DNA of 64,000 nt from Rhytidiadelphus loreus (lineage: Eukaryota > Streptophyta > Bryopsida > Hypnales > Hylocomiaceae): the NCBI GenBank assembly GCA_947034895.1, contig OX344763.1, positions 43,647,025 through 43,711,024 on the forward strand. The letters run 5' to 3'. Each line of letters begins with the position of its first letter. Position 1 is the first letter of the stretch. The notes beneath the pieces were generated by a model. That model had not been told where the DNA came from and searched no databases. It saw only the letters and a program-made list of their open reading frames with translations. The position numbers and the translations under genes were made by a program. This document shows, piece after piece, positions 561 through 22,696 of the stretch.

Positions 561-735
561 CAAGGTTGACGAATTACAGCATCCAACCCAAAATCGCGTC
601 CAAAAAGCGGACGTCTAGACGTGGCGGACGCGAGGGACGTTGGGTAAAACGGAGCCGTCCGTCCGATTTACCTCGGGGTAAATTCAAGCGTCGGAATTTC
701 GACGGCTGCGGCTGTCCGAATTCTGACGCAGTCGC
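561..735. repeat. Left terminal/subterminal repeat region of the outer element
   Basis: After the terminal CAAGGTTGACG come clustered GGACGT, CCGTCCGTCCGA and TCGGAA motifs. They resemble the array at the other end of the element (34918-35290) and those before its cargo genes. Subterminal repeats in hAT elements are transposase binding sites; that role is inferred here. Short open frames within the array are by-products of the repeat. Confidence 0.7.
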
Positions 736-1100
736 AACTGTCCTCTTGAATTGCAACCCTGGTTGAAACAGGATTAACAATGATATCATCATGATCCTCT
801 AGCCTTTCAAAAGCATTTCAATTACCACAAGTATGAAGCCAAATTTTTTAATTTTTTTCATCATCTTGCAATATATTATGCTTCATTGTAGAAAAATAAC
901 ATACAAATGACACAATCAATTGATATTTTGGATTGAAATCATCTTTGGTTAAGTGCCCCCTTCAAAAATAATGGTATTACCACCATCAATAAGTTTAAGA
1001 GTATTACAATCAAAGTCTCTAACAATCAATTGTCACTACGACAATTTGTGCTTTATGTAATATGAGCACATGAACATTTAAGCCTATGTCTTTTCTATTT
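736..1100. other. Spacer, nothing recognised
   Basis: AT-rich sequence between the left-terminal repeats and the 3' end of the outer transposase gene. I see no gene, RNA or repeat in it. It may hold the 3' untranslated region of the minus-strand transposase gene. Confidence 0.4.
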
Positions 1101-2526
1101 CTAAGGATTGTAATCAAAATCTCCTTTCACCTCTGCCCCACTACTCTCACACCCATTTCCCAATCTTGCGTCTTCGTCGTTGGATGTGTCTTCCATATCA
1201 TCTGATGAAGAGCCTAGACATGTCGTTCTTCCCTCTTGTACTTGCGTGGATGAAAGGCTTCTTCTTCGTTTGTCCTTTTTGAGTTCTTCTTTTACCTTTA
1301 ATAAGGATTTCCCATTTTGTTCCTTAATGCCAACAACACTTTTTATTTTCTTCTTTGAAACATGTGGATGTGCATCAAGAGGGTTTCCAATGGCTCTTAT
1401 TTTTTTCAACGGGGATATTGCAAAAGGTTGCATGACTCTCTTCTTATTGGCTCTAGGTGATCCCCCGCCCTCTAATTTTATTGTTGAGGGCCCTCCACTG
1501 CCTCCATGAATGATTATCTTCGGTGAGATTGAAGATTGTGGTTTAGGCACTGACATTGTTGGGGGCTGTCGTGGTGGTGCATTACGAGAATGCCGAATGA
1601 ACATTGAAGCCAATGTCTCATCCTTGTCATCGTCCGTGGATGATAAAATACCTTGACTAGGCCGCCTTTCTTTTGAAATATTTGCAATCCGTTTTCCAAG
1701 CCCTAAGCTCCCAACGCCATCCGAAATTTGACTAGAGGTTTTCAATTGTGCACATGGAGGGATGCTAGATGGTAGTACTTCAAAATCTTGCATGAGTTCC
1801 TTCTTGGCTTCTCCATTGATGCACAAAATTGGACTTCTAAACCCCACCACACATAGATCAACATTCTTCTCCGCTTCATTTGCCTTAGGGATTGGAATAC
1901 TTGGGTGACCACTGTTCGCACTTGCCAATACAATGGTTGACTCAACACTCGTGTTGCCAACGTTCATTTTGACATTCACCTCTCAAGGCTCACGTCCTCC
2001 CTTGCCAATGTGTTTGTCATTTTCTTCCGCTCGCAACACTCCTCTAAACGGAGACTCAAGTGGAAAAAGATCTTCATCCATTCTTTGAGTCCCATCATTG
2101 GGAATCGTTCTCTCATTGGCCTCTACATAAGCGTCTTCTTTTACCGATAGAACTTTTTCGCTACTCATGAACCCACTTCCATCCACAAATCTAGCTATGG
2201 AAGGTACATCTTCATCATACCCATCATTATCCTCATCCAATGGAAAGTCATAGATGTCTCGATCATTGGCTCGAAGATCTTCATTGGGCCGACTTGGGCT
2301 ATCGAACATTTCATCATCAAAATTGTGCCCGTCGTAATTCATGGCATCTTCGTCATCCAATAGAGGCCCAACTAACCCACCATCCTCCTTGTCTTCCGAG
2401 ATAAACCCCTTTGAATCTTCCGAATCCACGTTGTCATCGTACCACTTCTTCTCATCCTTTTCCTTTGATGCTGCCAAGACCTTGGAATTGGTGTACACAT
2501 ACACCAAGTCTGCCGCCCTTTGCGTT
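1101..2526 (-). pseudogene. Outer hAT transposase, C-terminal part (acidic extension), cut by the inner element
   Basis: The start of this piece (RAADLVYVYTNSKVL) is the post-dimerisation-domain tail of a hAT transposase. It joins in frame to the piece at 17148-18770 once the inner element and one copy of TTTGCGTT are removed. The rest matches the inner element's extension: an acidic region, the motif DEKDETLASMF (here DDKDETLASMF), a basic block beginning NKK/NKR and a DNDEDE-like acidic tail. A TGA at 1983-1985 interrupts the frame. The extension is not part of ordinary hAT transposases, and its retention in both copies suggests a family-specific role. Confidence 0.85.
2519..2526. other. 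Left target-site duplication of the inner hAT element
   Basis: TTTGCGTT directly precedes CAGGGTTGAC; the identical octamer follows GTCAACCCTG at 17148-17155. Removing the element plus one octamer restores an uninterrupted transposase frame reading NKLTTQRAADLVYVYTNSK. Confidence 0.97.
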
Positions 2527-2835
2527 CAGGGTTGACGAATTTCAACGTCCGGGGCAAAATCACGTCCATTTTTCGGACGTCCGGACGTCCGGACGTCCAC
2601 ATTTTCGGGACGCGCGGACGATGTGGACGGCGTCCATCGGACGGCACCCGTCGGCCGTTCGGACGACGCGGACGGGCGGTCGGCGCGGTCGGCGGACGGA
2701 ACGACGGGCAGACGGGCGGACTGCGGACATGTCCGCGCGGACGGCGGACGGATGGCGCGGATGGCGGACATGTCCGCGCGGTCGGTGGACGAAAGGCGCG
2801 GACGGCGGACGGCGCGGATGGGCGGACATCCATAA
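2527..2835. repeat. Left terminal CGGACG-rich array of the inner element
   Basis: Very GC-rich, with reiterated GGACGTCC, GCGGACGG and GGACATGTCCGCGCGG units. Palindromic units such as GGACGTCCGGACGTCC lie just inside the terminus, as expected for subterminal transposase binding sites. It lies 3' of the transposase gene, so it is not that gene's promoter. Open frames through it are artefacts of the periodic sequence. Confidence 0.85.
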
Positions 2836-3145
2836 AACTACAGTACATGAAGCCAAATTTGATGCATTATACTATTATATTTTTGTAGGTAATACTTGAT
2901 CCAGAAAATGATGCACACAATGTAATTTCAGTCAATAGTGCTTGACTATTTAGAAACAAAAAAACCTTGATGATATTTTGAACATCATTAAGTTCAGGTG
3001 CATTACAATGATAGGTTCAAAAAATAAATTGCCGTTACATGCTTCCATGTAACAATTCATTATGAACACTTGAATAATGAATTATACATCCCTTTCATCC
3101 CGAAGGCTGATAATCACTATCTCCTTTCACCTCTGCCCCGCTACT
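2836..3145. other. AT-rich spacer 3' of the transposase gene
   Basis: About 310 AT-rich bases between the left array and the transposase stop codon. Probably the 3' untranslated region of the minus-strand transposase gene. Nothing else is recognised. Confidence 0.4.
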
Positions 3146-6100
3146 TTAACCTCTAGTATCCCATCCTGAATCTTCATCTTCATCGTTGTCTGACTTTTCC
3201 ATATCCTCTGATAAAGATTGTACAATTGCCCCTCCTTGTACTTGCTTGGATGCAACTGACCTCGTTGGTCGGCCCTTCCTCTGCTCTTGTTTGGCTCTTA
3301 GTATAGACTTTCCTATGCCTTCTTTAAGGCCATGAATCGGTTTTAATTTCCTCGCTGAAATTGGTTGACATACATCAAGAGGGGTTTTACCAAGACTTTG
3401 TCTCTTTGATGGGGAAATTGCAAAAGCTTCCATTAATCTTTTATTTCGAGCTTTGTGGGACTCTTTCACCGTTGGTGGTCTTACTTGCGATCCTCCTTGA
3501 TTGGGTATCTTTGCTCCAATCATCTGCTGCAATGTTCCATCAGACGATTTGAATGAATCACGTTTTGTTTGGCTAGAACGTTGACCAAACATTGATGCCA
3601 ATGTCTCGTCCTTCTCATCATCGCTCCATGATGAATTGAATGGATCTGGATTGACACGAAGGTGCATTCCAGTCGGACTGGTCAAATGTTGTTCAACTTG
3701 TTTTCCAAATCTTGAGCCTCCGGGACCATTCAAAGTTGTACTACCTCTTGTATGTAGTGTTGATGGACGATCGCTATGTGGTCGTAATTGGAGATCTTGC
3801 ACAATTTGCTTCTGGTCTTCGACGTTGTGAACTAGCATTGGGCGATCAAACTCCGTCACACGTGCATCTACATTCGATGGTACTTCCACACATTCAACAC
3901 TTGTATTATCCACATTCATGTCAGACTTCACCCCACACTCTCCCATGTCATTAACTTCGGGATTTTCTTCTACAAGTGCCATTGCCATGGGTAGACTCTC
4001 GAGAATTGGAATCACTTCATCTGTTTGGGGGATGCAATCATTGACAAACATTGCCTCATTTTCCTCCACTATTTGCGCATGAGTGTCCTCCGTATTGGCT
4101 AGAATCTTTTCGCTAGTCAACAACCCGGTTCCATCTACAAATTTAGCTATAGAAGGGCCACCTTCATCATATTCACAATTGTCCTCATCCAATGGAAAGT
4201 TGTAAATGTCTTCCGCATTTCTATCCCCTTCTTCATTGTTCCGATTTGGGCTCCGGAGCGGTTCATCATCCAAATTGGTGATGTCATCATTCATAGCATC
4301 TTCGTCATCGAATAGAGGATCACCATCTTCATTACGCTCGTCCTCCGACATAGAATCTTCCGACTCCACATTCTCGGTGTACCACTTCTTCTCATCGTTT
4401 TCCTTTGATGCAGAAAGGACTTTGGAATTGGTGTACACATACACCAAATCTTGGGCTCTCTGTGGCTTCAACTTGTTTCGAAATTTGTTGTGAACAAATG
4501 AATAGCTACTCTAATTTCGTTCACATGAAGACGAAGATACCAGTTGGGCCAAAATCCTCTTAGCAATTGGAGCAATGAGCTTCCCACACGCACCTTCAAA
4601 ATCCCACCAAGCGTGCGCCGACAATTGTTGCTCGTCCGGGTTCAACATGTTGTGAAATGGAGGTTCCCTGTGGCGGAAGGCTACAAATTCTTTCACGACC
4701 GAGGCGTACTCCCCTTGTTTGCAAATTTTCATTAGAATACGCTTGCATGCATCCATTGCATCTTGGTCGTCGGCTAGCTCTTGATCTTCAAGAAGGTAGG
4801 GGTTCAACAAAGCTCCTACATAATGTAGATCGGTCTCCACCAATTCCCGTCGGGCATAATACGATTGCACTAGTGGAATGGCAAGGTCTGAGGATAAACG
4901 AAAAGGCGGTTTATCTAAAGAGAGGACATGTTTCTCTAATTTCCTCATTATGTGCAGCACCTTGCCCATGCATGGCCTCTTTGCATCCAAGTCACGTAGA
5001 CCATTTACAACGGGAGCCGACAAGTCCTTGAAATTTTGACAACGGCGCCAAAAATGCTCGCTCAAAATTATCTTCTTCACCATCCGACATTCATTGCGGG
5101 ATTTGGAGTTCCGCCCAAACTTCCTTGCGTATTCATCCCATTGCGGGTCCGTCACTGTTTGTTGCAACTTCCCATTGACCTTCAACATGCACCCAATCAT
5201 GTTGTAATTAGAGGCAAACCTTGTTTCCACCGCCATCAACAAATTATATTCCGGTGAGTACTTCCGAAATATTGCAAGTGGCATGTGCCGCTTCTTGAAG
5301 AATTTCACCACGATATGGGCATTTTCCACGACTTCTTCAATCCATTGTTCATTCCCCCAATCTTTCAGCAACAAATTGAGGGCGTGCACCACACAACCTT
5401 GAAAAAAAATGTGGGGATATTTACTAGATATCAAATTCCATGCTGCAGGGTTCATTGACGCATTATCTGTACTCACCTGCACCACATTGTTGGGGCCTAC
5501 TTGTTCTATGAAGCTCTCAAGTATGCCAGCCAAGTATGTTGCATTTTTTTCGTGCCCTGTCGTATCCACCGCTCCCAAGAATTGCTCACCCGCAGAAGAC
5601 ACGAGCATGGCATTTATCAACGGCCGATTCGTAACCGACGTCCATCCATCAATAGACAATGTTGCTCCAAACTTCCTAATGCTGTGTTTGGTCCGCTTTC
5701 GGAGATTGACCTCAATGTCTGTCTTTGCTTGGTCAAGAAATTTATGGCGTAAGTCGTGATAAGACGGTGAGATATAAGGCCGTTGAAACTCGGCGGTTCG
5801 CTTCACCGCTTCTTTGAATGCTAGGTTCCTCGCAACAGCAAATGGTATGTTTGCAGCATAAAAGAAATTGGCCCACACCGCATTCAACTTGCGTTTATTT
5901 GCTTCTTCAAATCCATTCACCAGACTACTTTGCTTCTGACTAATTAGAGGCCTACTGCTTGATCCCCGTGGAGTACCACGCTCACTTGATCTTTGTGTAT
6001 TGAGGTTCACTTCAAAAGACAATGGATCCAAATCCTCCGGTGCAGTGCATGAGTCGGAATGTGTAGACCGTGCCATGTTTCTTCCATTTGAATTATCGCA

Positions 6101-6373
6101 TTCCCGCATAGCCATAGGTGTGCCACTGCCATCCACATTGTTCAGAGACGATCTTCGTGGGATCGCCCCTTGGCAACCCAAAAATAAAGCTCGAACTTGA
6201 GATGTCATTTTTGCGCAAAGGCTAATTCCTTTGTCATGAGCCCCCGATGTGCCTTGGTATCCTAAGTGGCTAAACAACCGGCTTACTTTCTTGGCAAACA
6301 CCAAGTTGCAAAACCGGCATTGCACTTTACCAACCTCCGGGAAGCCATACCAAGAAGACCAATCCTTGCTCAT
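3146..6373 (-). CDS. hAT transposase with acidic C-terminal extension; TAG in place of the conserved Trp
   Basis: The ATG at 6373 opens MSKDWSSWYGF. Residues 5-55 form a BED-type zinc finger (QCRFC, then FSH and a later His/Cys). DUF659 follows at roughly 190-345, with SIDGW (first catalytic Asp) and VSTDNAS (second Asp). The C-terminal hATC dimerisation domain includes HAWWDFEGACGKL and SSSSCERN. At 4511-4513 the codon normally encoding Trp in CERNW is TAG. The frame then continues open for about 450 codons: SSYSFVHNKFRNKL, VYVYTNSK, an acidic region, DEKDETLASMF, and a basic, possibly nuclear-localising block near 3250-3460. Total frame is 1,075 codons against about 650-750 for typical hAT transposases. 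The product should bind the element ends and catalyse cut-and-paste transposition in the nucleus. Whether the TAG is a disabling mutation or is read through cannot be settled here. Confidence 0.92.
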
Positions 6374-6697
6374 AGTGATCACTTCCAATTCCGTAAATTG
6401 GATTCAAATTAAAAATGTAACCGTTGGATAAGATTTGTAAAAAATATTAGAAACAATGTGTGAATGAAGCCTTGGAAACCAAAGCCCCCCTGTCCACTGA
6501 ACTATGCATTACCAAGCAAGGGACACAAAATAAATTGTAGCTCCTAGCCCTTGGAAATCTTAGCGTTCAGTTTCTCAAGAGTGCTTGTTAGTCTAAAATT
6601 CTAAGAACTTATAGATTTCAGATCAGGCCCATTTCTCATGACCGTTGAGCAGCAAAAACTAAAACATTTCTAAAGCCCCAACGGTTCCGAGAACAAA
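6374..6697. promoter_or_regulatory. Upstream region of the inner transposase gene
   Basis: AT-rich leader between the ATG at 6373 and the GC-rich array at 6698-6915. By comparison with the other three genes it should hold the 5' untranslated region and core promoter, but I see no clear TATA box. Confidence 0.4.
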
Positions 6698-6915
6698 AAT
6701 GCGGACGGCAGCGACAGAAGCGCGGACGGCGACCTGCGACAGGCGGACGGTAGCGTCGGAAGCGCGGACGGCGACCTGCGACAGGCGGACGGCAGCATCG
6801 GAATCGCGGATGGCGACCTACAACAAGCGGACGGCAGCGGCGGAATCGCGGACGGCGAGCTCCGACAAGCGGACAGCAACGTCGAAATTGTAGGCGGGTG
6901 GTGGACTAGCGGACG
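6698..6915. repeat. GCGGACGGC tandem array upstream of the inner transposase gene
   Basis: A tandem array with a period of about 42 bases built on GCGGACGGCGACCTGCGACAG, degenerating towards the right. It carries the same core (CGGACGG/CCGTCCG) as the element termini and lies about 330 bases before the transposase ATG. Probably a binding site for the transposase or a partner; that is inferred from shared motif and position. Confidence 0.75.
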
Positions 6916-7259
6916 GCTGGTGGATTTTGAGTAATTCATTAATTCTACAAGTTTTAATTTTAGGGACTTAGTTTAGAGATGCACGTAATTTTAGGAATAC
7001 AGAAATTAATGAGATAAAATTATGTTGAGAGATAGGCATGTCCAAAATCATACTTGACAAGAAAGTATCGCATAAAATATCAAAAACTTAGGAGAGTAAA
7101 TTCAAAAACATTTGAGTAACCCACATATTTTTATATTAATGAAAAGCAACTCATAGCATACTATGAGTGTTGTGAATTAATAGTATTGAATCCTCTCGAG
7201 ATTCAAAATTAACAACACTCCATAATGTCATATCGAAATACAAACAAGGTGTAACTACC
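6916..7259. other. AT-rich spacer
   Basis: Intergenic sequence between the transposase upstream array and the stop of the RING-protein gene. No gene or repeat seen; likely 3' untranslated sequence of the RING-protein gene. Confidence 0.4.
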
Positions 7260-10200
7260 CTATATATTATCCGTGCTACCTCCCTCAGAAAGACGCGACG
7301 AACCCTCTTTATCCTTCAGCCTTGCACTTGCACGGCGTGTTTGAGGACCAAGACTGCCCTCACTCATAGGCCCCATGGACGCAGCTTCCATGTCTACTGC
7401 GGAAAAGTGTCGTTTCGTATCCGGAGAGTAGTCATCCTCGTCTTCAATCTTCCGTTTATTCTTCCGTTTTGGAGTCAAATCCACGTCTTCTGCCTTCAAC
7501 GCTCTCAAAGCAGCATCCACTTTATCTACCAAAAAGTTGACCACGTCATCATCATTTTTCATGGAAAACCACTTTGGTTCTTCTCCCCCCACTAAAAATG
7601 CCCTCCAATGCATTATGATTTCGCCCATCCTCTTATCAAATGCCCCCGCCACCTCCACCATTGAATTTTCTGTGCTTGATTGCCCATCTAGTTCTACAAA
7701 GGCACGAACTTGTGCAGCTTCCTCCAACTTTGATAAAAACAGGGCCCTCCCTAGCAAAGTGTGATTGTAATCCCCGTATTGCTCATTAAACTCTTGTGTA
7801 GGCTCCACCTCTATCCAATTGCCATCTAGTCCTTTCTTCACTTCCTTTTCGGGAAATCGAAAGAATTTGTGGTGTTGCATGCTCCAATGGCCCCCCATAC
7901 TACGACAAAACACTTCTCGATCCTCCTCGTTGGCAATACCTCTAGCTCGCAACTCCACCTCTCAATCGTGGGTCATCCACACCAAGGAATCTATCGGCAC
8001 CTCCGATGATTCGTATAGCCCATGTGTAGAATTTACCAAATCCCATGTTAGACTTTTTCCCCAATGCGCATAATTTTGAAATTTGAATGGCGCTTGGTCT
8101 AACGGAAGGGTCCATCGATTGTATTCATGGCCGGGGGGCATAGCTTCCGAGATCCCGAGCATTTCGTAGAACCTAGGAGGCAAGGGAGAACGACACTCGG
8201 GGCACACCGAACGAATAAGGGATGCTCTCACGATGCATGTGACGTGGAAAGTGTGGGGACATTGGCCCATGGTGAGGGCTCCCTCGGGCCCAAAATGAAC
8301 TCGACAAAGGCTACAATGACCCTCCAATATTAAGGCCGAAGGATCACAAGCATGCTCCATTGTCTTGTCATTCTTCTTGATGTGTGCCGAAAGCGTGGGA
8401 TAAGGGACCCAACCTTCTTCTAGTTCCAAGGCCCAATTAATGGAGGCCACCTCTTCCTTCTTTGTGTGGTTCAAACGCTCGAACATTGCATCCATGTCTC
8501 CCCAATATGTGATTTCGGTAGACCCCGTTGGCACAAAGGCAAACATCTTCTTCAAACGCCAAAGAGAGGACTCCACGCTATCGCATTCTTCATCCGACTT
8601 CATTGCCAATTTGAGTAGCCCTTTCATTGCTCGTGATATTACAGACGGTTTGTCTTCGAGTTTTTGCACCCATGCCAACCATCGAGAGTCCAAAGTGCCC
8701 TTCGGCATACATTCATCCAATTGCACTATCCGTTGCAATCGTTTCAACTCGGCCTCCAAACGCGTGTTTTCTTCGGTGACCTCGTTCAATTTTTGCTTCA
8801 ATTCTTTGACCTCATTGCTTTCCGTTTGCATGGAAGCATCGTGGAATGTCGAATTAGTATTACCGATGGGGGTCAAATACAACAAATCCGGATTGTTGTT
8901 TTCCTCAATGCCATCTAGTCTGTCCTCCACTTTCTCCTTTCCCTTCTCAACAACCACCTCACCTTCTCGGATTTTCTTCTTCAACGCTACAATTTCGTAC
9001 TCCAAGTCTTCAATAAACTTCCTTTGGAAAAGCAATGTATTATGGCGACGATCTGATTGAGCCTCCAATGTCTCTAGCTTCTCTTTCAATTTCGAAGCAT
9101 CCGCCGCCAACTTGAGATTCTCAACATCTATACCCTTATACTTCTTGATCTCCTCTTGGTATTCACTCAAAACCTTCAAATCTGTAACACGCTCGTCGAG
9201 AAATGGTGTCATAGATTGGCTGAACTTCACGAAGTCCAAGGCACCACTCAACAATTCAGGTGCTAATTTGGAAAAATTCGTTGCAACTTCTTGCAGCCTT
9301 GGAGCGACTTCTACTACAAATTGAGCCGTAACTGCCAATTTTGATGCGGTCAAAACAAAATCAGCCCATTGACTCTCGGAAGGCTCATCTTGGATTTCTG
9401 CGCCTCCGTTACTCGTGCCATCCTCGTTGGTGTGCTCCATGTTCTTTAAACGTTCTTCGTGTGACCGCCACAAATGTGAACCTTTACACAAAGATTCTAA
9501 TAATGCAACCGAGGGCATCCGACGAACAATTTGCCATTTTGATGTCCTCAATGATGACAAATGTGGATACTTGGAATCGATAAATCCACCAAGAATGGTC
9601 TCATTTGGCAGCACGCCATCCGATTGTTCTCCATGATGAGGTGAAGGATGCACCTCAACTCCTAGATTCAATGTCGGGCTCAGTGTCTTCGGCAAACTTT
9701 GCTTCGAAGTACTTGCCAAATGATTTAAAGCATTGCTGTCTATAAGATTCTGAATGGCAATTCCCGCTTTAGCAACTTCTCCCTCAATGACATCATCATG
9801 ACGTTCATGTGGTGCGGATGGGGCCATGTGCTCCACCATTGTTGTTCCATTTGGTGTGCATATCAAATCCATTGGAGGAGTTAAAAATATGTCTCCCTCC
9901 ACATGCTCGCCTTTGAAATCTTGTATTGCCGTACGGTTTTGTGTTGAAGCCAATTGCATTGCCGAACTTGTGACCTCCACGTCCTTGGTCATAGTCATTG
10001 TCATTGGTTTGACCTCTCTTTTGGATTTAAATGCCTCACTTGGCCCTGCTTGTGGATTGTACAAATCGGGAATATCTTTCCGATTACATTCAAGCACACG
10101 TGGAGCGTTCGTTGTCGTTGGAAACGTGCTCCAATCCACCTTGCGTGCCAATATCAATTTTGCATACACCATAGAAGCCAAGCTGTAGTTTATATACCCC

Positions 10201-10547
10201 TTGGACATTGCTTTATCCCCGAAGAGGGCCCGCCAAACTTCATGCGCTCGGTGAATGAAGTGCGCATTGTTGTAATTCCCTGGTTTGCAACAAAAACCAC
10301 GAGTATGGATGATGTGGGCCTCCCTAGGCCACAACTTGTCGATGTGGTACATCTTCACATACTTCTTGCACGTTTTGGAGGACCAATATTCCGCTTCCTC
10401 CGCTTCCCAACCACCCTCTGCTTTGATGTTGGGATCATCTAAAATCTCATAGTGGAGCTCATGGGCGGTTCCTTTTGGTTTAGGCCTCCTACTATTGTCA
10501 CCTCCGCCGGTCAACCCACCACTACCTTCAACGCCTTGACCACTCAT
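7260..10547 (-). CDS. CKKY-domain / coiled-coil / RING-H2 protein (probable E3 ubiquitin ligase) of the inner element
   Basis: The ATG at 10547 opens MSGQGVEGSGG; an upstream in-frame TTG is not needed. Residues 50-145 form the domain shared with the UIM protein: WSSKTCKKYVKMYHIDKLWPRE, a Cys pair, HFIHR, then SMVYAKLILARKVDW. A Lys/Glu-rich coiled coil spans about 430-620. Residues about 742-785 carry a complete C3H2C3 RING-H2 finger: CSLC, then QCPHTFHVTC, then CPEC. RING-H2 fingers usually recruit ubiquitin-loaded E2 enzymes; activity here is inferred. A TGA at 7962-7964 interrupts the frame after WMTHD, where the outer copy reads WMTQNMEVELR, so the last 233 codons are lost unless it is read through. 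Those end in a basic, Ser-rich tail with a KRKIEDEDDYSP motif. The full frame is 1,095 codons. Confidence 0.85.
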
Positions 10548-10771
10548 GGTTGTCAACTTGAACTTGTCCCCAATTGAATTTAAATAGTCACCAAAAGTAT
10601 GTGTCTTCAATCCACCCAAGTTTCAATGAATGTTTGTATGTGAACCAATAATGATAGATGAATGACCCCACCTCTCCACCATGTAGGAGCAACTCGCACA
10701 ATGAAGCAACAGTAGCACATCCAACACGGTTGTAAGTCCTAGGAAGGAGAGGGAAGTGAGAAAAAACAAGA
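10548..10771. promoter_or_regulatory. 5' leader of the inner RING-protein gene
   Basis: The sequence around 10670-10745 (CTCTCCACCATGTAGGAGCA, AACAGTAGCACATC) is recognisably similar to 26130-26200 in the outer element. There it lies in the same position relative to the start codon and the TATA box, so it is a conserved 5' untranslated region or core promoter. Confidence 0.6.
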
Positions 10772-11125
10772 AGGCCGTCCGCCCTTATAGCCGTCCGAAA
10801 CCAAACCTAAGATCGTCCGCCACCGAACCTCCCCCGACCAATGCGAAGCGGACCCGAACGTCCGCTCAATCGGACGGCCCATCCGTCTCCAAATCCGACG
10901 CTGCCGTCCGCCTGCTGCCCCCCGTCCGCGATTCCGACGCTTCCGTCCGCATTTCCGACGGGCCGTCCGCGTGCTGCAGGCCGCCGTCCGCATTTCCGAC
11001 GCTGCCGTCCGCCTGCTCCGACGGGTCCGTCCGCATTTCCGACGCTGACGTCCGCCATTCCGACGGGTCCGTCCGCATTTCCGACGTTGCCGTCCGCCCT
11101 TCCCTCCCCGAGGTCCGCCCAAGCA
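10772..11125. promoter_or_regulatory. CCGTCCG array and TATA box of the inner RING-protein gene
   Basis: A dense array of CCGTCCGC, TTCCGACG and CCGTCCGCATTTCCGACG units. Reading on the minus strand, GGCTATAAGGGCGG (TATA at 10784-10790) is embedded in the array. The outer copy has GGCTATATGATCGG in the same place (26232-26238). The unit CCGTCCGCGTGCTGCAGGCC occurs here and again before the kinase gene (about 12589-12608), so the promoters share specific units, not just base composition. Confidence 0.75.
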
Positions 11126-12524
11126 CACTTGGGGAGTTTGGGCCTTGTTTTCACCCTCTTGAGTCTTCTAGTCCTCTCCTGATTTCCAGAAGCATAGGAT
11201 TCTTTCATTTGGGAATGTAGAGACGTTGTACTAGTACCGGATGCTCATTGATGAAGGAATGTTTCAATGTTCGAAGCATTGACTTGGTTTTCATAAATGT
11301 CAAGGCAATCCACGGACTCAAAGGTAGTATTTTGACTAATGCAATGCCTCCAAACCCTTGTTAGGGTTTAGGGTATAGGGTTTAGGCCTTTCGTTGTCCA
11401 AATGGGGGTGACAATCACAATCCTTTGTCTTTGATTTTGGATAAACAAATATGCCCCCCAAAATTCCAAATAGAACTAATAACAAAATGGAAAGGAGTTA
11501 TTGAATTGCAAACAATTCCCAAGGTCCAATTCATGTAATATTCAAAGTTGATTAATTTTCCAATGGATCAAATCTTTTAGAGGTTTGAGTGCCCAAGCCA
11601 TTCAAAGTGTGTTGTACATATGAAAAAAAAAAATGGCCTTTTAGTATCCACAACGAAAGAAACATTTGTCCTTGCATTTCCTAACCATGTAGATGTTTAG
11701 ACTTTAAAAAATTTGCTTGAATGCCTAGTAGGGTGCACATGAACTTGTGAGGTTATAACTTATAAGAAGACAAGTGTATGCACTATTTTCATAGCACGTT
11801 GTCCCACCCTAGTGATTGAGCAAGTTATAATTTCATACTAGAATTAATTTAACTTGATATAATTGGCGCTAATATTTTGGCACCTTATGATTCTTTAAAG
11901 AATGGAAATCAATACATTGGAAATCAATAAATTCATTCAACTCAAAGGGAGGGGGGGGGGAGACTTCTAGAAATCTACTTCCACACGTTTTCATGCTAGA
12001 GTATCAAAACCTTTGCAAGCCCCTAATATCCCCTTCATGTAAAATACCATTTAAAAGAATTTTTGTCTTTGGTTTTGAAATGACCATTTTATGAGGTGTT
12101 GACATACAAGAAACAAACCTCGTAGCTTCATTTGGACAATGAGAAGCTTTAAGTTTTTTCTCGAAGTTCAAATAAGTAGAATTAAATTACCATGTGTTCA
12201 ATTCTTCATTTCATTCAAAAATTTATATCATAGGAAATTCAATTGCATCCCTAGAAAATAAGAGAAAATTATAAACTCAATGCATGCACGTAAAAACAAC
12301 ATAAAAAAATATGTGAATCTTTTAGATAATTCCTAAATTCACACATCCTTTTTTCTATTTATTTTTTAATTTTTAGATCAAATGAAATCCCAGCGCCATT
12401 GGCACAAAGGAACCACATTAAAAATAAAATTGAACCGGAGGGCCAGCCAGCTGGTGACATCAAGGATTCAAAGACCCCTAAGGCCGTAATGATGAATTTG
12501 GGCGGGATGCACTTCAAAATCCCA
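11126..12524. other. Divergent intergenic region between RING and kinase genes, with telo-box run
   Basis: About 1.4 kb between two divergently transcribed genes. At about 11357-11388 there is a short run of TTAGGGTTTAGGG-type plant telomeric repeats. The outer element has a similar run at about 26795-26828, upstream of its RING gene. A G homopolymer lies at about 11949-11960. No ORF or RNA is recognised in the rest. Confidence 0.5.
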
Positions 12525-12830
12525 CCCCCGTCCGCTTTGGCGGACCCCGCCGTCCTCCGTTCCCACGCTGCCGTCCGCCCGTCGGAGCCGCCGTCCGCGT
12601 GCTGCAGGCCGCCGTCCGCGTTGGGGAGTCGGCGTCCGACTGGGCGGTCTGTTCTAGCCGTCCGATGAAGCGGACTGCCAATCCGTGCGTTTCATCGGAC
12701 GGCCGAAGCGAGGCGGACCGTTGGCCGTCCGCTTTGGGGTCTGTCCGCTCGTGCGGACCTCAAGGCCGTCCGCCTCATATAAGGCGGTGCGGACGGCCCG
12801 TCCGCTCTCACTTTTGCCTTCCCCCTTGTG
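12525..12830 (+). promoter_or_regulatory. CCGTCCG array and TATA box of the inner kinase gene
   Basis: Repeated CCGTCCGC and GCGGACGG units, including a GCCGTCCGCGTGCTGCAGGC unit shared with the RING promoter. The likely TATA box is CATATAAGGCGG (about 12778-12784). It is followed by a leader with GCGGAGAGCTTGGTGGTT, which is also found after the TATAAGAG of the outer kinase gene (31611-31705). Conservation of TATA and leader in both elements supports a real promoter. Confidence 0.78.
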
Positions 12831-13007
12831 CTTTGCAAGAGAGAGCGGAGAGCTTGGTGGTTTATCTTCCATTGGCTCCTTTCGTTGGGAAGGTAGGAGG
12901 TGGGTTTTGGGGGCCTATATTTTGCCCGTTTTTCCCAGTTTATGTGTACTTGGTGCACTGTAATTTTTTATGAATTAAATTGGGACTAAAAATTAATACT
13001 TTCTACG

Positions 13008-14492
13008 ATGCCGAGACCGAAGAGAGCGGCGAAGGGGAAGAATGTGGTGCCCAATATTGACTCAGCACGTGAACTTCCTTCCAATGCTTGCAAAGCATTC
13101 TTGATTGAATACATTGTGAAGTTTTATGAGGCGGAAACTACAGTGTCTCTTGACACTAAATATGTGAGATACCAAGAGGAATGTGTAGACAAATTCAAGA
13201 TGGATATGACACAAAAGTTCACGGATGCTCTAAACGTTCTAGAATGGATTCATGAAATGGAGAAGAAAGGCTTCCAACAATTTCTAAAGAACAGGGTGCA
13301 AGACGCATTGTAGAATGCGAAGGTGATCCTAGAAAAATACAGGAGGGAACACCGTGCAAGTGATGAAAGCTTTGAACAAGTCATTCTCAAAGTTGACTTG
13401 TTTGTTCGTCGTTGTGCTCCGTTTGCAAAGAGACGCAATCGGCGAGGGTCATTGGGTTGGTGGACTTCGGATGAAGGAGATGTAGAATTGCAACGTGGAC
13501 GACGACATCTCATAGCACTACCAGACACAGCAAGGGTGATTCTACAAGATGACAAAATCTTGAAGGGCGGATACGCAACAATTCGCAGGGTTCGAATTGA
13601 AGGATGTCATGAGATTCCCACATTTTGGGAATTTGCTGCAAAGATATCTCATCAACAACGGATTCGTCCTCAACTTGCGAAGTTGGAGCACCAAAACGAA
13701 TCAATGGCAGTGAGGATTCCACATGACGGAGTTATTCGGTTTGCCGCTGTCCATGCAACAAACAATGAAGGGTATGCATATTGGTGGAATGGTGGTACAT
13801 TGCGGCAAATGTTGATTCTCGATAATGATTATGCAGATAACATTGCCATTCGATTGTCTTATTCACGACCAACGCCCGAAGAGATGATTCAAGCTTTCCG
13901 TCTTGGTCGATGGAGAAAAAAGCGCACCGAGTTGGCATGGGCATTGGTGCATATCATGAATGCGGTCCACAATGCGGGTCATCTACACAATGATATTTCT
14001 CCCGACAATATCATGTTTCACTTTCCTGAGGATGAATCACGTGTTTACATTGGAGTTTGCGATTGGGGCATGTCTACGGTTCGTACTGAACCGATGAAGT
14101 CATTGTATACGTTCACATCCGCGGCAGATCGGGATGCAGCTTTGAACCGAAGGTGGTGGGTGGACCCTTCAATTGCATACGTGCACTACAAAGATGCGGA
14201 TGTGGAAATGATTCCAACTTTGTCACGTAAATCGGAGGAATATGCCGTTGGTCGAATAGCTCAACGGATCAACAAACTATGCATGTCAGAGGCCTACACA
14301 TCGCTTCATCGTGAAAATGAAGGACATACGAGGTTTAGCCACCACGATTTGGCAAGGGTATTTCACCTCTACTTGGATCGCCTTTGCAATTCAGTGATTG
14401 CGGAGCGCGGAAGTTTTTCCGAAATCATTCAACGATTTACTAATTCTTACAATTGGCTTATTCCAGATGACCACTTCCGTCACTCATATTAA
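13008..14492 (+). CDS. Divergent protein kinase encoded by the inner hAT element (single in-frame TAG)
   Basis: The ATG at 13008 opens a basic start (MPRPKRAAKGKN). About 160 residues without a recognised domain are followed by a kinase-like fold: a glycine-loop-like KGGYATIRRVRI (about 186), a candidate ATP-anchoring Lys in FAAKIS (about 212), the catalytic loop HNDISPDNIMF with Asp about 329 and Asn about 334, and a DFG equivalent CDWGMS (Asp about 352). The catalytic Lys, Asp, Asn and metal-binding Asp are all present, so an active Ser/Thr-type kinase is plausible; substrates are unknown. A TAG at 13311-13313 follows QDAL, where the outer copy has TGG (NALWNAS). Downstream the frame is open for 393 codons. 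Homology to the outer copy covers the full length. Confidence 0.88.
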
Positions 14493-15516
14493 TATATGAG
14501 TGTGCTACATAGTACTATAGATTATAGAAGTAATCGATAAATGTATCAGTGAGGATGTACGTTACTATGTGTGCTAACTATAGACTATATATACACCATC
14601 AATGTATGCCAATATATGTGAAATTGGCTTTCCGTTTTGAACATTTTGTATTTTTCGGAACACAAACTATTTAAATACAAAACATCTTTTTTGGGTGGAT
14701 GAGAAATGTAGACTTGGAGTTCTTCTTCTTGATGTATCATTGATGTTGGATTGTTGGGTACCTAGCCACCTAGGTTGGCAAGGTGGTGTGCTAAATTGTA
14801 TGATCTATCGTGTAAATGTGTATGGCACATGCAAGAGAATCCCCCAAATTTTCATTGGGGGGCAACAAAGTAACAACACCATTTGTATTGAAATAATACA
14901 ATTATACAATATGTTGTTTTGCGAAGTTGATTTTGTTTAGGAGAAGCTTAAGTGCCAAACTCCTTGAATCAATTTTCCGTTCATTATTCTAGAACCCTAA
15001 ATGAAATTAAAATTCCAAAGCATAATTGGATTGTGGTCTTGTAAATTAAACCGAAATTGCAGATTTTAATTTGTAAAAAATTCTTTACTGAAATTTTGTC
15101 TGAGATTAAAGGCGTTCTCAATTTCAAATGCAGTGCTTATCATGCCATATCTTTCAATCCATGCAGTCAAAATTTTTGAAATTTTGGCGCCATGCTCTAA
15201 AATAAGTTATGTCCAAAATACTTTATTTAAATTCCCCCCAGAAATTGATGTTGATGTTTTTCTACGGTATATACCGTAGAAGTGGTTCGAACAAATCCAT
15301 TTTTCTAAAAACATCCATAGGGCTTTAGGGCTTAATTACAATATATTTTATTCATAATTTACAAATAGGAAAATACTATTTGTTAAGAGCCAACATCTTT
15401 GTACTGTGCTTGTCACTTTCTATATTATGTGGCAAGAGATTACAAATTTACAATCACTTGATTGTATTGTGAGACAACAACTACAATCTTACAAATGTCC
15501 AATAGTCCAATCTACT
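14493..15516. other. Convergent intergenic region of the inner element
   Basis: About 1 kb of AT-rich sequence between the 3' ends of the kinase gene (plus) and the UIM-protein gene (minus). Nothing is recognised beyond 3' untranslated sequence. Confidence 0.4.
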
Positions 15517-16614
15517 TCACTCAGATTCTGATTCAGTGTCATCTTTTTGGCTTGGGCCTGTACCACTAGACCTATAAACATTGAGAAATGGTCCTCCGCC
15601 ATAGTAGTCGTCTCCATATCTGTTTTGCCCACTTGCTTGTCCATAATGTCTTTGGTATGGACCTCCAAAAGTTGGAGGAGGAATTGAATCATTGTGAGTA
15701 GATGCTTCTTGAGTTGAACCGCCATAAGAAGGGCCTCCTTGAGGTTCATGAGAACCACCTCCAGTAGACGTAAAGTTGTATTGGGAGCCTCCCTGGTTAC
15801 CTTCAAAATGATGCGTGGTTCCGTGGCTTATCCTTGAGCTGTGATACCCCCCTTGAGGGTCATTATCGTAGTGTGAAATACTTCGCGTATCTTGCGAGCC
15901 ATATGCACCACGATCGGGTTTGTACACCCCATGATGGCCATATTGTCGACCACGGTCCTCTAGGCTTCTTTGCATTGCCTCTCGCATTTCTTGTTGGTAT
16001 TGAATGTCCTCCCGATCTTCTGTACGCTCGTGCCTCTCTTCCATCCTCACGGGTGTTGGAGTGTCTTTCTCATCATCATCACCTGACCATTCATCTTCTG
16101 CATCCGGCAATACAACCGGTGGAAATCCAAACTGGCCTCGATTAGACCACTCTGGCATGCAATCGCTCGGCCCAATCCAACTGGTATAAAGTACCGCATC
16201 ACTGCGATTCAAGTGGGTAACATCTTTTCCGTAAATTGTGCGCCAATCTACATCTTTGTGGAGTACAATCTCCGCCCAAACCATGCTCATGTTGGAATAG
16301 TTCATTAAATTCGGTTTGGAGTCCCGTATTTGAGCTGAACGTGTTACTTCCTCATATCGATGAACAAAGTGTTTGCTTTGGCATGTGGAAATTTGTCCTT
16401 CCCAACGACGAACTTGCACCTCTGCGCGTTCTCTGGACCATATTTTGGAGAGGTGCATCATTTTGATGTACTTCTTGCACGTCGTGCAGTCCCAAGTTTT
16501 TTTGGGTTCTTCCCATCCCGGTTCAGCTACACACATTTGGTTGTCCCAATCATCCCAATTTATGTCTTGGGATTTGTCCTTCTTACTGGACTTCGATTTC
16601 TTATCGCGAGGCAT
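15517..16614 (-). CDS. CKKY-domain / UIM protein of the inner hAT element
   Basis: The ATG at 16614 opens MPRDKKSKSSKKDKSQDINW. The frame has no stop and gives 365 residues. Residues about 40-135 carry WDCTTCKKYIKMMHLSKIWS, a Cys/His cluster (CQSKHFVHR) and NYSNMSMVWAEIVLHKDVDW, matching the N-terminal domain of the RING protein. After an acidic stretch (EDEWSGDDDEKD), residues 202-220 read EDIQYQQEMREAMQRSLED. This fits the ubiquitin-interacting motif pattern (acidic patch, hydrophobic-xx-Ala, Ser, acidic). The C-terminal third is Gly/Ser/Tyr-rich and probably disordered, ending in TESESE. It may bind ubiquitinated targets and share a partner or DNA site with the RING protein; both are inference. 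Confidence 0.88.
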   Translation of the reverse strand: MPRDKKSKSSKKDKSQDINWDDWDNQMCVAEPGWEEPKKTWDCTTCKKYIKMMHLSKIWSRERAEVQVRRWEGQISTCQSKHFVHRYEEVTRSAQIRDSKPNLMNYSNMSMVWAEIVLHKDVDWRTIYGKDVTHLNRSDAVLYTSWIGPSDCMPEWSNRGQFGFPPVVLPDAEDEWSGDDDEKDTPTPVRMEERHERTEDREDIQYQQEMREAMQRSLEDRGRQYGHHGVYKPDRGAYGSQDTRSISHYDNDPQGGYHSSRISHGTTHHFEGNQGGSQYNFTSTGGGSHEPQGGPSYGGSTQEASTHNDSIPPPTFGGPYQRHYGQASGQNRYGDDYYGGGPFLNVYRSSGTGPSQKDDTESESE

Positions 16615-16780
16615 GGTAAGCTTGCTTAAATGATTAATGATTCGCACTTACACTTGAAACAATTTAGGGTTCAATCACAATCATTTGCACACCAAAACGG
16701 AAGAGGCGCACAGAGCCTTAGGCACTAGATCATCCACTCCGCAAGGGAAACGATTGTGGCAAAATAAGCCATGCTCTCCG
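16615..16780. promoter_or_regulatory. 5' leader of the inner UIM-protein gene
   Basis: Short leader between the ATG at 16614 and the TATA box at 16781-16789. Nothing unusual is seen in it. Confidence 0.4.
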
Positions 16781-17147
16781 CTATTTATGCAGTCGGACGG
16801 CATGAATCCACGTACGGGAGCATCGGACGGCACACATGCGGACGGCAAGATCGAACGGTGGAAAATCGGCGTCCGTCACATCGCACGGTCACTGTCCAAA
16901 GCGGACGGGCCCCCGACGGGCGGACGGACATCCGGTCGCCAGTCCGCCCCTGTTCCGTCGGGCCGTCCGCTTCTGCTCCGTCGGGCCGTCCGCTCCTGTA
17001 CCGTCGGCCCGTCCGCTCCTGTTCCATCGGAAGAATCAGCCGTCCGCTCGTCTAGCGGTCGGACGCCATCTACCGCCAGGTATGTCAAAAGACGTCCTGG
17101 GGTTAGCGTCCGCGGACTCTGGACGTCCGGACGCCCTGTCAACCCTG
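16781..17147. promoter_or_regulatory. Right terminal array doubling as promoter of the UIM-protein gene
   Basis: Units of about 24 bases (CCGTCCGCTCCTGTTCCGTC) and other CGGACG motifs run to the right terminus. On the minus strand GCATAAATAGCGGAGAG (16781-16789 core) is a TATA box; the outer copy has CCATAAATAGCG at 28621-28632. The element's right end thus serves both as subterminal repeat and as upstream region of a cargo gene. Confidence 0.8.
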
Positions 17148-17155
17148 TTTGCGTT
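17148..17155. other. Right target-site duplication of the inner hAT element
   Basis: TTTGCGTT, identical to 2519-2526. It begins directly after the terminal GTCAACCCTG. Confidence 0.97.
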
Positions 17156-18769
17156 GTCAACTTGTTCCGAGATTTGTTGTGAACAAAAGAATAACTACTT
17201 CAATTTCGTTCACATGAAGACGAGGATACCGGTTGTGCCAAAATTTGCTTGGCTATTGGAGCAATGAGCTTCCCACATGCACCTTCAAAATCCCACCAAG
17301 CATGTGCCGACAATTGTTGCTCATCCGGGTTCAACATGTTGTGAAACAGAGGTTCCCTATGGCGGAAGGCTACAAATTCTTTTACCACCAAGGCGTACTC
17401 TCCTTGTTTGCAAATTTTCATTAGAACACGCTTGCATGCATCCATTGCATCTTGGTCGTCGACTAGATCCTTATCATGCAGAAGGTATGGATTCAAAAGA
17501 GCTCCTGCATAATATAAATCTGTCTCCCCCATTTCACGGCGTTTGAAAAAGGATCGCTTCAATGGTTCGGTGAGGTTTGTTGCCAAACAAAAAGGATGCC
17601 CTTCTAGGCTAAGGACATGTTTCTCTAAATTCCTCATAATATGCAACACCTTACCTATGCATGGCGTCTTTGCATCCAAATCACGTAGACCATATACAAC
17701 GGGGGCCACCAATTCTCGCAAATTTGTCCACCGGTCCCAATAATGCTCTTCTAGAATGAACCTCTTCACATCACGAGACTTCGTGCGAGATTTGGCTTTG
17801 CTATTGTCGTTCAATGTATTCATATATGCCACCCACTGTGGATCCACCACACTTTGTTGCAATGCTCTTTTGACTTCCAACAAACAATCAATCATAATAA
17901 ACACAGAGGCAAACCTTGTTTCCACCGGCTTCAACAAACTGTACTTTGTCTCATACTTCCGAAATATAGCAAGTGGCATGTATCTTTTCTTGAAGAAATT
18001 TACTACGGTTTGGGCTCTTTTTACCGACTCTTCAATCCATTTTTCCTTTCCCCAATCTTTGAGCAACAAATTCAAGAAGCACCACGTATCCTTGAAAAAA
18101 AATGTGTGGATATTTGTTCGTTACCAAATTCCATGCTGCCGGATTCACTGGAGCATTGTCTGCGCTCACTTGCACTACATTCGTAGGACCCAGCTGCTCT
18201 ATGAATTTTTCTAAAATTGTGGCCAAATATTGTGCTGTCTTTTCCACCCCACTGGTATCCACTGATCCAAGGAATTGTTCACCCGCTGAAGATACAAGCA
18301 TGGCATTGATCAGTGGACGATTTGTAACTGAGCTCCATCCATCAATGGACAATGTTGCTCCAAACTTCCTGACGCTGTCTTTGGTCCTTCTATGCACCTT
18401 CTCCACAACATCTGCCTTGGCTTGATCAAGCAATTTATGCCGTAGATCATGATATGATGGTGGAGTGTAGGCCATACCATACTCGGAGGGTTTTTTCACC
18501 GCTTCTCTGAAAGCTACGTTTCGGGCCACTGAAAAGGGTATATTTGCCACATAGAAGAAATTGGCCCACACTTTATTCAAATTCTGTTTTTTTGTTTCTT
18601 GAAAGCCATCCAAAAGCCTACTTTGTGTTGGAGGCCTACTGCTTGAGGCCCTGCGAATGTCACGTCCGCTACATGTTTGCATACTTGGGGTTACTTTGGA
18701 ACCCCCTCCAACGACTTCTTCCGGTGTTGTACAAGAATCTTCTTACGTAGAACGTGGCATGCCCCTTCC

Positions 18770-18770
<1 letters not shown>
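17156..18770 (-). pseudogene. Outer hAT transposase, N-terminal and catalytic part (BED domain lost)
   Basis: Encodes DUF659 (TLSIDGWSSVTNRPLINAML, VSADNAP) and hATC (HAWWDFEGACGKL, SSSSCERN), closely matching the inner transposase. Damage: a TAA at 18743-18745; a 2-base deletion near 18075-18095 (just after FFQGYVV) that shifts the frame; and TGA at 17200-17202 in place of the Trp codon of CERNW, the same codon that is TAG in the inner copy. The N-terminal BED zinc finger is absent and the gene stops at a TA microsatellite. The C-terminal part resumes at 2526 on the other side of the inner element. Confidence 0.9.

Positions 18771-18772
<2 letters not shown>

Positions 18773-18828
<56 letters not shown>
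18773..18828. repeat. (TA)n microsatellite
   Basis: About 55 bases of almost pure TA, lying exactly where the BED-finger region and promoter of the outer transposase should be. It probably marks a deletion breakpoint, because the 3' end of the RING pseudogene follows within about 150 bases. Confidence 0.95.
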
Positions 18829-18979
18829 AAAAGACATACATACGTAGATATTAAAGGCAAAACAAGACATGCCGTGATTACAATTATTTACTACTATTTT
18901 CACCTCGTGACATTAAAACAAAAGTCTATCGAGTATAGAGTTCTATCTCTTCTATTGCAATAGACCTATTGGTCCATTT

Positions 18980-22217: not shown

Positions 22218-22696
22218 CATTATCTACATTAACAGAAATAATAGACAATAGCAATTATATAGAGTAGAAATTTTCAAAATTTCCGTAATGGGTAGGGAAT
22301 AGGAAGCCTAAAACCAGAAATAGGAATTAGAGGCTTTACGGAAAACCTTAAATTGTAATTAGGGTTATAGTCGGATCCGGAAACCCTAACCCTAATCCGG
22401 AAACCGGAAAGTTCCGGCCGAGTAGGCCCTAGAGCCTAGTTCGGCTAGGGAACTTGCAGGAACGCCAGGCTGAAAAGCTACTTAACCCTCGCTGTCTTCT
22501 TCATTCTTCCTCTTTCTCCGCGTGATTATCGCGATGGCGCTTAGTGAGTGAAAGTGTGGTGAGATAGGAACGCGTTAGGGAGAGAAGGGGAGGCCGGTGC
22601 CGATCGCACCGGAAAGTAGGACGGAAACTTAGCGGATCAGGCGACGGAAACTTAGCGGAAACATTAGCGGAAGTGAGTCGGAAGTGAGGATAGAGT

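What the first reader, a model, noticed from the sequence alone, without database searches (positions are those of the whole stretch)
2527..17147. A 14.6-kb hAT element carrying four genes: transposase, RING-H2 protein, protein kinase and UIM protein
Seen: CAGGGTTGAC inverted ends, a perfect TTTGCGTT duplication, and restoration of the interrupted host frame when the element is removed, so the boundaries are firm. Inside are four genes that recur together in a second, diverged element. Known: hAT elements generally carry one transposase gene and are a few kb long. Inference: the three extra genes are conserved cargo forming a functional module (ubiquitin signalling plus phosphorylation) that may help the element regulate transposition, resist silencing or act on host proteins.
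Basis: partly seen in the sequence, partly recalled or inferred. Interest (0 to 1): 0.96.

Follow-up and report, generated by a model that had tools for sequence, protein, structure and literature searches.

The report
Four-gene hAT transposon family in moss
A plant genome, likely a moss, holds many copies of a 14.6-kb jumping gene that carries, besides its own transposase, the same three extra genes (a RING-finger protein, a protein-kinase-like protein and a protein with a ubiquitin-binding-like motif), which are predicted to help the element keep itself switched on.

Summary
Confirmed and extended. The window holds a 14,621-bp hAT element (2527-17147; 10-bp ends, 8-bp duplication) with four genes. 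It sits inside a second, diverged four-gene element, whose ends I also found (561-35290; duplication GCTTCCCG). In the window's own 407-Mb genome, of seven exact end pairs under 25 kb on part of contig C1, five hold all four genes, four of them with different perfect 8-bp duplications and 96-98% protein identity; two short ones hold none. Genome-wide protein searches give 22 clusters with all four genes, 22 of 22 in one order and orientation, 81 with two or three kinds and 55 with one; random placement gives about 3 with two or more kinds, none with three. The second subfamily is also multicopy, with the UIM gene moved and inverted. So the extra genes are integral, not accidental cargo. New: both element ends and the upstream regions of all four genes carry arrays of one CCGTCCG motif, partly 21-bp spaced; RING and UIM proteins share an N-terminal domain without a match in solved structures. 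The arrays resemble those bound by anti-silencing VANC proteins of VANDAL elements. That the three proteins counter silencing is inference. The window copy is damaged in three of its four genes.

The parts
2527..17147 (.). inner four-gene hAT element, 14,621 bp
   Evidence: 10-bp inverted ends, 8-bp duplication, restored frame; siblings
2519..2526 (.). target-site duplication TTTGCGTT, left
17148..17155 (.). target-site duplication TTTGCGTT, right
3095..6373 (-). inner hAT transposase gene (1095 aa in siblings E1 and E2; here TAG at 4511-4513 and an early TAA at 3146-3148); DUF659, hAT dimerisation region, about 450-aa C-terminal extension
7260..10547 (-). inner RING-H2 gene, 1095 codons, TGA at 7962-7964; shared N-terminal domain, coiled coil, RING-H2 at residues 744-786
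13008..14492 (+). inner protein-kinase-like gene, 494 codons, TAG at 13311-13313
   Evidence: model and fold search on sibling E1
15517..16614 (-). inner UIM-like gene, 365 aa, open: shared N-terminal domain (C43, C46, C78, H82) and UIM-like helix about 197-219
2547..2823 (.). CCGTCCG/CGGACGG array, left end
6702..6910 (.). motif array 329-537 bp upstream of the hAT start, 21-bp period
10777..11113 (.). motif array 230-566 bp upstream of the RING start, 21-bp period
12530..12800 (.). motif array 208-478 bp upstream of the kinase start
16794..17128 (.). motif array 180-514 bp upstream of the UIM start, also the right end
561..35290 (.). outer four-gene hAT element (20,101 bp without the inner one), with a further insertion of roughly 3.3 kb
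   Evidence: ends and duplication GCTTCCCG; spacing in siblings
553..560 (.). target-site duplication GCTTCCCG, left
35291..35298 (.). target-site duplication GCTTCCCG, right
17157..18682 (-). outer hAT gene, N-terminal two thirds, frame broken; start not located
1101..2511 (-). outer hAT gene, C-terminal extension
19160..22223 (-). outer RING gene, frame broken, one RING ligand His replaced by Tyr
28931..29935 (+). outer UIM-like gene, open; inverted and moved relative to the inner element
31851..33347 (+). outer kinase gene, two TAG stops (32040, 32547)
26224..26625 (.). outer motif array, separated from the RING gene by an insertion
28323..28597 (.). outer motif array upstream of UIM
31493..31633 (.). 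outer motif array upstream of kinase

Best explanation
This is a large, multicopy hAT DNA transposon whose unit of inheritance is four genes, and its three accessory proteins are likely made to keep the element expressed and mobile against host silencing. Shown by sequence: matched 10-bp ends, 8-bp duplications, four genes in fixed order, a second multicopy subfamily with the same set in another order, purifying selection on all four between the subfamilies, and one motif array repeated at both ends and upstream of every gene. Inferred: the arrays are binding sites that tie the four promoters and the ends into one regulon; a DNA-binding protein of the element (the transposase, or the domain that the RING and UIM proteins share) sits on them; the RING-H2 protein would ubiquitinate and the kinase would phosphorylate a target there (host silencing factors, or the transposase with its acidic tail), with the UIM-like protein reading ubiquitin. 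This would work like the VANC proteins of VANDAL elements, by another chemistry.
For: Ends, duplications, frame. Siblings E1-E4 with duplications ACTTGGAC, AGTACGGT, CACCAACC, TCTATCGG and all four genes. Genome: 22 of 158 clusters hold all four kinds, 22 of 22 in one order; 33 hold three, 48 two, 55 one; random placement 3.3 with two or more kinds and 0 with three. Second subfamily: 60 of 70 nearly full-length UIM copies have the kinase within 20 kb, 60 of 60 downstream on the same strand; 39 of 70 have RING within 30 kb, 39 of 39 divergent and upstream. pN/pS bootstrap ranges below 1 for all genes, inner against outer. Arrays: 83 of 87 GTCCG/CGGAC sites lie in the 5.5 kb of noncoding DNA; CCGTCCG 46 observed against 0.6 expected; present 180-600 bp upstream of all four starts in the inner copy and six siblings, none in the 600 bp downstream. 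Shared RING/UIM domain, hhalign 99.8%. Kinase fold: 1748 PDB chains at E 1e-3 or better. VANC parallel: PMC5735166 passages, PMC10398659 abstract.
Against: No expression, methylation or binding data. No named DNA-binding domain in RING or UIM proteins; the shared domain has no PDB match. Pfam finds no UIM; the kinase scores below Pfam's cut-off in the family's own copies. 55 of 158 clusters hold one kind only, 3 of 71 hAT hits have no cargo hit within 40 kb and 29 of 89 outer-type kinase hits have none of the 70 UIM hits within 20 kb, though the lists are truncated. RING is damaged in 7 of 7 copies checked. Among siblings constraint is weaker: pooled pN/pS 0.52 RING, 0.48 kinase, 0.80 UIM, untested for significance. 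Arrays at the ends could serve the transposase alone.
Confidence: 0.5

Rival explanations
1. The accessory proteins act on the transposition reaction itself: the kinase and the RING protein would set the activity, stability or cell-cycle timing of the transposase; silencing is not their target.
For: The hAT gene has a long acidic, serine-rich extension of about 450 aa, a possible substrate; the arrays lie at both ends, where transposase should bind.
Against: Arrays also lie upstream of all four genes, which a reaction-only role does not need. Nothing here separates the two roles otherwise.
Confidence: 0.3
2. The accessory genes act on the host rather than on the element, as beneficial or driving cargo that pays for the element's carriage (for example through protein turnover in the haploid phase).
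For: RING and kinase proteins can act on host targets; copies are concentrated on contig C3 (54 of 112 UIM hits), whose nature is unknown.
Against: The genes are tied to the element by shared arrays and are damaged alongside hAT in single copies. Free-standing domesticated copies were not searched for.
Confidence: 0.12
3. Passive capture: host gene fragments carried along, as in Pack-MULEs or Helitrons.
For: Plants have many such elements; 55 of 158 clusters show one kind of gene only, and two short gene-less elements share the ends.
Against: Full-length genes, purifying selection, same set in two subfamilies with different order, fixed order in 22 of 22 clusters.
Confidence: 0.03
4. Chance or assembly artefact.
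For: None.
Against: Copies on five large contigs; different duplications and private lesions in the copies read.
Confidence: 0.01

Closest known systems
hAT superfamily of plants (Ac/Tam3-like, DUF659 clade; names recalled)
   Same: 8-bp duplication, short inverted ends, transposase with DUF659 and hAT dimerisation region
   Different: 14.6-20 kb instead of a few kb (usual size recalled); three conserved extra genes; transposase with a 450-aa extension; motif arrays upstream of every gene
VANDAL/Hi Mutator-like elements of Arabidopsis with VANA, VANB, VANC (PMC5735166 passages, PMC10398659 abstract)
   Same: accessory proteins beside a transposase; dense tandem arrays of a short motif in the element's noncoding DNA, among them upstream of a gene
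   Different: another transposase superfamily; VANC is not known to me as a RING, kinase or UIM protein; binding and loss of methylation were shown there, not here
MuDR and En/Spm, two-protein plant transposons (recalled)
   Same: regulatory second protein, subterminal motif arrays bound by an element protein
   Different: one accessory protein, not three; no ubiquitin or kinase function
ULP1-bearing MULEs (Kaonashi) and OTU-bearing Helitrons (recalled; papers seen only in the listing)
   Same: a ubiquitin-system protein encoded by a DNA transposon
   Different: proteases, not RING, UIM-like or kinase; not hAT
ToxhAT, for which the name ToxTA is proposed, 14 kb, in fungi (PMC12506042 passages)
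   Same: size and former name
   Different: 2-bp TA duplication, likely non-autonomous Tc1/Mariner, not related by these features

Membership tests
hAT superfamily | 8-bp target-site duplication | tested here: met
   inner, outer, E1-E4, S1, S2; E5 has both ends but no matching duplication
hAT superfamily | short terminal inverted repeats starting CAG | tested here: met
   CAGGGTTGAC; outer left end CAAGGTTGAC
hAT superfamily | transposase with hAT C-terminal dimerisation region | tested here: met
   PF05699 39.9 bits over cut-off 21.4 in sibling E1, PF04937 121.6 bits; 16.3 bits, under cut-off, in the truncated window ORF
hAT superfamily | N-terminal BED zinc finger | tested here: inconclusive
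   PF02892 E 0.076 in the window copy, not listed in E1
hAT superfamily | active transposition | not testable with these tools
   only siblings with about 98% mean gene identity and private lesions
VANDAL-type anti-silencing elements | Mutator-like transposase and 9-bp duplication (recalled) | tested here: not met
   hAT transposase, 8-bp duplication: works like, is not a member
VANDAL-type anti-silencing elements | dense tandem motif arrays in noncoding parts | tested here: met
VANDAL-type anti-silencing elements | element protein binds the arrays and removes methylation | not testable with these tools
   no assay data
RING-H2 E3 ligases | C3H2C3 zinc ligands | tested here: met
   read by eye in the inner copy and in the homologues that reach this region in A7; the outer window copy has Tyr for one His. 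Pfam E 9e-5 to 6e-6, just under the curated cut-off
eukaryotic protein kinases | kinase fold with Lys, Glu, HxD..N, DxG | tested here: met
   K212, E231, N334, D352 invariant in 36 rows (H327, D329, G354 nearly so), with HND and DWG; Foldseek
UIM proteins | UIM recognised by the Pfam model | tested here: not met
   no UIM model among the families matched by 40 members; core motif in 40 of 45, 1.5 expected

The most novel reading that the evidence does not exclude
hAT transposons of mosses have evolved their own regulon: a RING-H2 ligase, a UIM-like ubiquitin reader and a kinase, directed by a new zinc-binding domain to CCGTCCG arrays at the ends and at every promoter, which together undo host silencing of that element family alone. 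It would be an anti-silencing system that works through ubiquitin and phosphorylation rather than through a VANC-like protein.
Probability: 0.3. Interest if true: 0.92.

Novelty: new variant of a known kind. Interest (0 to 1): 0.82.

Why it matters
hAT elements are usually thought of as one-gene elements. A hAT family with four co-inherited genes, in two multicopy subfamilies, changes what counts as an autonomous hAT element. It offers a defined motif, a defined set of proteins and many natural copies with one gene or another broken, so whether a transposon can recruit ubiquitin signalling against silencing becomes directly testable. It also warns genome annotators: these kinase, RING and UIM-like genes are transposon genes, and two Ceratodon purpureus proteins named hypothetical protein belong to the same kinase family.

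Tried and rejected
Stop-codon readthrough: both window elements have TAG at the same Trp of the hAT dimerisation region followed by a long conserved frame. I considered regulated readthrough or a changed code and dropped it when five siblings read in that frame showed TGG. Fifth gene in the outer element (22694-24586): rejected, since 29 of 39 outer-type copies with both genes have a RING-UIM spacing of 4.98-5.51 kb against 8.5 kb in the window, so it is probably an insertion; a similar protein lies outside the element at 35515-36288 (local score 353 against 43 at most in 100 shuffles). Passive capture: rejected. Fold of the UIM protein's domain: no match. Viral contigs, three scans: nothing; genome contigs: one weak kinase-like hit in a 3.4-kb contig labelled Omnitrophota (L001), not followed. 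Rfam: nothing at gathering score. In one search the hAT part was mis-framed by a spurious span and is not used; one search replaces it. The zinc pattern C-x2-C..C-x3-H holds in 40 of 69 UIM-type hits and 0 of 33 RING-type hits, so the RING version must use other ligands, if any. One search also scored the UIM pair in two wrong frames by accident; only the matching frame is used. Literature searches listed no paper on a hAT family with RING, kinase and UIM genes; the library holds open-licence papers only. Whole-word 'hAT' was not found in the two reviews searched.
Full report
What is there. The element at 2527-17147 has 10-bp inverted ends and an 8-bp duplication. It is inserted in the C-terminal part of the hAT gene of a second element; joining the flanks restores that frame. 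The second element has its own ends at 561 and 35290 and the duplication GCTTCCCG. Both hold a hAT transposase gene, a RING-H2 gene, a kinase gene and a UIM-like gene. The outer element is 20,101 bp without the inner one.

Is it a family? The window lies in an unnamed 407-Mb genome, contig C3. The exact end CAGGGTTGAC occurs 439 + 442 times, against 183 + 226 for the reversed pattern as control, so a good part of these places are chance. Among the roughly 100 listed places, all on C1, I picked by eye seven end pairs (+ then -) closer than 25 kb. Five hold all four genes (E1-E5) and two (S1, S2; 5.5 and 6.6 kb) hold none and look non-autonomous. E1-E4 have perfect, different 8-bp duplications; E5 does not. 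S1 and S2 also have perfect duplications. E7 (one exact end) holds all four genes as well; E6 (one exact end) holds UIM and kinase in two pieces each, RING and the start of hAT, then another hAT on the opposite strand.

Genome-wide, the tool scored 112 UIM, 105 kinase, 53 RING and 71 hAT matches; these are lower bounds. Linking hits with gaps up to 12 kb gives 158 clusters: 22 with all four kinds, 33 with three, 48 with two, 55 with one (UIM 22, kinase 18, hAT 12, RING 3). All 22 four-kind clusters read hAT- RING- KIN+ UIM-. The 102 clusters with two or more hits and no gene twice are all consistent with that order; one more holds a gene twice. Random placement (every contig taken as 80 Mb) gives 3.3 clusters with two kinds or more and none with three. 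Of 71 hAT hits, 68 have at least one cargo hit within 40 kb on the expected side. Pairs: 75 of 112 UIM hits have a kinase hit within 20 kb (74 within 5 kb, 74 of 74 on opposite strands; 1.5 expected); 48 of 53 RING hits have UIM or kinase on the expected strand within 15 kb, none with the wrong strand. Misses are partly the tool's: E5 counts as a miss and E6 although the partner genes are there.

The outer subfamily is multicopy too. Its UIM protein gives 144 rows: 97 are copies of its own type, one is a second piece of such a copy, and 46 are the inner type. Of the first 70, nearly full-length, 60 have an outer-type kinase within 20 kb, all 60 downstream on the same strand; of 89 outer-type kinase rows, 60 have one of these 70 UIM copies within 20 kb. 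39 of the 70 have an outer-type RING within 30 kb, all 39 divergent and upstream; 35 of these also have the kinase, counted on a shortened kinase list. I did not search the outer hAT protein, so the full set of four is shown for the outer type in the window only. So the set of genes persists although one gene moved and turned round between the subfamilies; linkage alone would not explain that.

Other genomes. Homologues: 69 UIM, 138 kinase (120 listed), 33 RING, mostly from short unnamed contigs. Two kinase hits carry Ceratodon purpureus names, one a cluster of 126 sequences on a 110.5-Mb contig. One hit at 67% identity is labelled Bacilli bacterium, a metagenome bin, which I take for contamination without a test. 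That Ceratodon is a moss is recalled, and that the window is a moss is inference from this. UIM P0005 and RING P0191 are both listed with a single contig of 17,649 bp, and kinase P0147 and RING P0217 with a single contig of 879,700 bp; equal lengths suggest the same contigs, but the contigs could not be read.

Are the genes functional? Inner against outer, dN/dS is 0.18 and 0.33 (two parts of hAT), 0.49 (hAT extension), 0.23 and 0.37 (two alignments of RING), 0.22 (kinase) and 0.39 (UIM), with pN/pS bootstrap ranges below 1. Some synonymous differences are near saturation, so the ratios are rough. Among the siblings the pooled pN/pS is 0.52 (RING), 0.48 (kinase) and 0.80 (UIM), untested: weaker, as copies that decay after insertion would give. 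In the inner copy and six siblings (E6 left out) the damage differs from copy to copy: the hAT frame is free of stops and frameshifts in 4 of 7 (E1-E4), though E3's open frame starts at a later ATG; UIM in 6 of 7, kinase in 3 of 7, RING in 0 of 7. Elsewhere RING frames of 1120 codons or more without stops exist in 9 of 53 hits, hAT frames of 1100 or more in 17 of 71, and UIM without stops in 52 of 112 (my counts by eye). So undamaged frames of each kind exist. Mean pairwise identity is 0.983 (RING), 0.981 (kinase) and 0.982 (UIM), which points to fairly recent activity.

What the proteins are. Transposase: DUF659 and hAT dimerisation region above cut-off in sibling E1, with a C-terminal extension of about 450 aa. 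RING protein: RING-H2 ligands in the inner copy and in the homologues that reach this region; the outer window copy has lost one; coiled coil before it. Kinase: catalytic Lys, Glu, HND..N and DWG conserved in 36 rows; AlphaFold model of the E1 protein pLDDT 85.8; Foldseek finds kinases, 1748 chains at E 1e-3 or better (the 50 best shown); Pfam Pkinase matches 23 of 25 homologues at E 1e-3. UIM-like protein: core motif [LMIVF]xxAxxxSxx[DE] in 40 of 45 homologues of 300 aa or more, 1.5 expected from shuffles, on a predicted helix of moderate confidence; 24 of the 69 hits were shorter and left out; Pfam sees no UIM. The UIM and RING proteins share about 150 N-terminal residues (hhalign probability 99.8, E 3e-30). 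In the UIM protein this domain is predicted with high confidence (pLDDT mostly near 90) and has Cys/His that could bind zinc; Foldseek finds no solved relative, and Pfam gives only weak zf-C3HC hits in 12 of 40 members. All functions are predictions.

The arrays. GTCCG/CGGAC occurs 87 times in the inner element, 83 of them in 5.5 kb of noncoding DNA, nearly all in five clusters: both ends and upstream of all four starts (the right-end array is also the UIM upstream array); the 1-kb stretch between the 3' ends of kinase and UIM genes has none. CCGTCCG: 46 observed, 0.6 expected, maximum 3 in 200 simulations. The commonest spacing is 21 bp, 10 of 38. In the inner copy and E1-E5, E7 (E6 left out) every one of the four genes has 3 to 19 sites within 600 bp upstream and none within 600 bp downstream of its start. 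In the outer element arrays remain upstream of UIM (7 sites) and kinase (6, with 1 downstream); the RING gene has none within 600 bp upstream and 1 downstream, since an insertion seems to have split it from its array, and the hAT start was not located. Such arrays are known as binding sites of VANC proteins in VANDAL elements, where they are tandem repeats in noncoding DNA, including upstream of VANA21 (PMC5735166, passages; PMC10398659, abstract).

How it likely works. Shown: one element, four genes, one motif at ends and promoters. Inferred: an element protein binds the motif, which switches the four genes on together and marks the ends for transposition; the RING, UIM-like and kinase proteins act at these sites on silencing factors or on the transposase. 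I put 0.5 on this account and 0.3 on a purely transposition-linked role. That the four genes are one inherited unit I hold at above 0.95.

Limits.

Noticed in passing
contig C3 of G000 (holds the window): 54 of 112 inner-type UIM hits and 34 of 97 outer-type rows lie on C3, and 33 of the 56 lower-ranked inner-type hits do. C3 may be a low-recombination or sex chromosome; its length and nature were not tested.
   Followed up: partly
window 22694-24586 and 35515-36288: Two related ORFs (local score 353, shuffles at most 43), one inserted in the outer element, one just outside it; no informative Pfam match. Probably another mobile-element protein.
   Followed up: partly
window 41188-41260: A third hAT-like left end (CAAGGTTCAC, then 63 bp at 86% to the inner left end); no partner sought.
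   Followed up: no
L024, L025: Elements of 5.5 and 6.6 kb with the same ends and perfect 8-bp duplications but none of the four genes: likely non-autonomous partners.
   Followed up: partly
hAT genes at 4511-4513 and in the outer element: The same Trp codon is TAG in both window copies, TGG in five siblings of the inner one: coincident or a hot spot of C-to-T change.
   Followed up: yes
N-terminal about 150 aa of RING and UIM proteins: A shared domain with no solved relative; many short hits of both searches align over this part only.
   Followed up: partly
window 46565-48382: Pieces on the minus strand that look like a short-chain dehydrogenase gene (read by eye), outside the elements.
   Followed up: no
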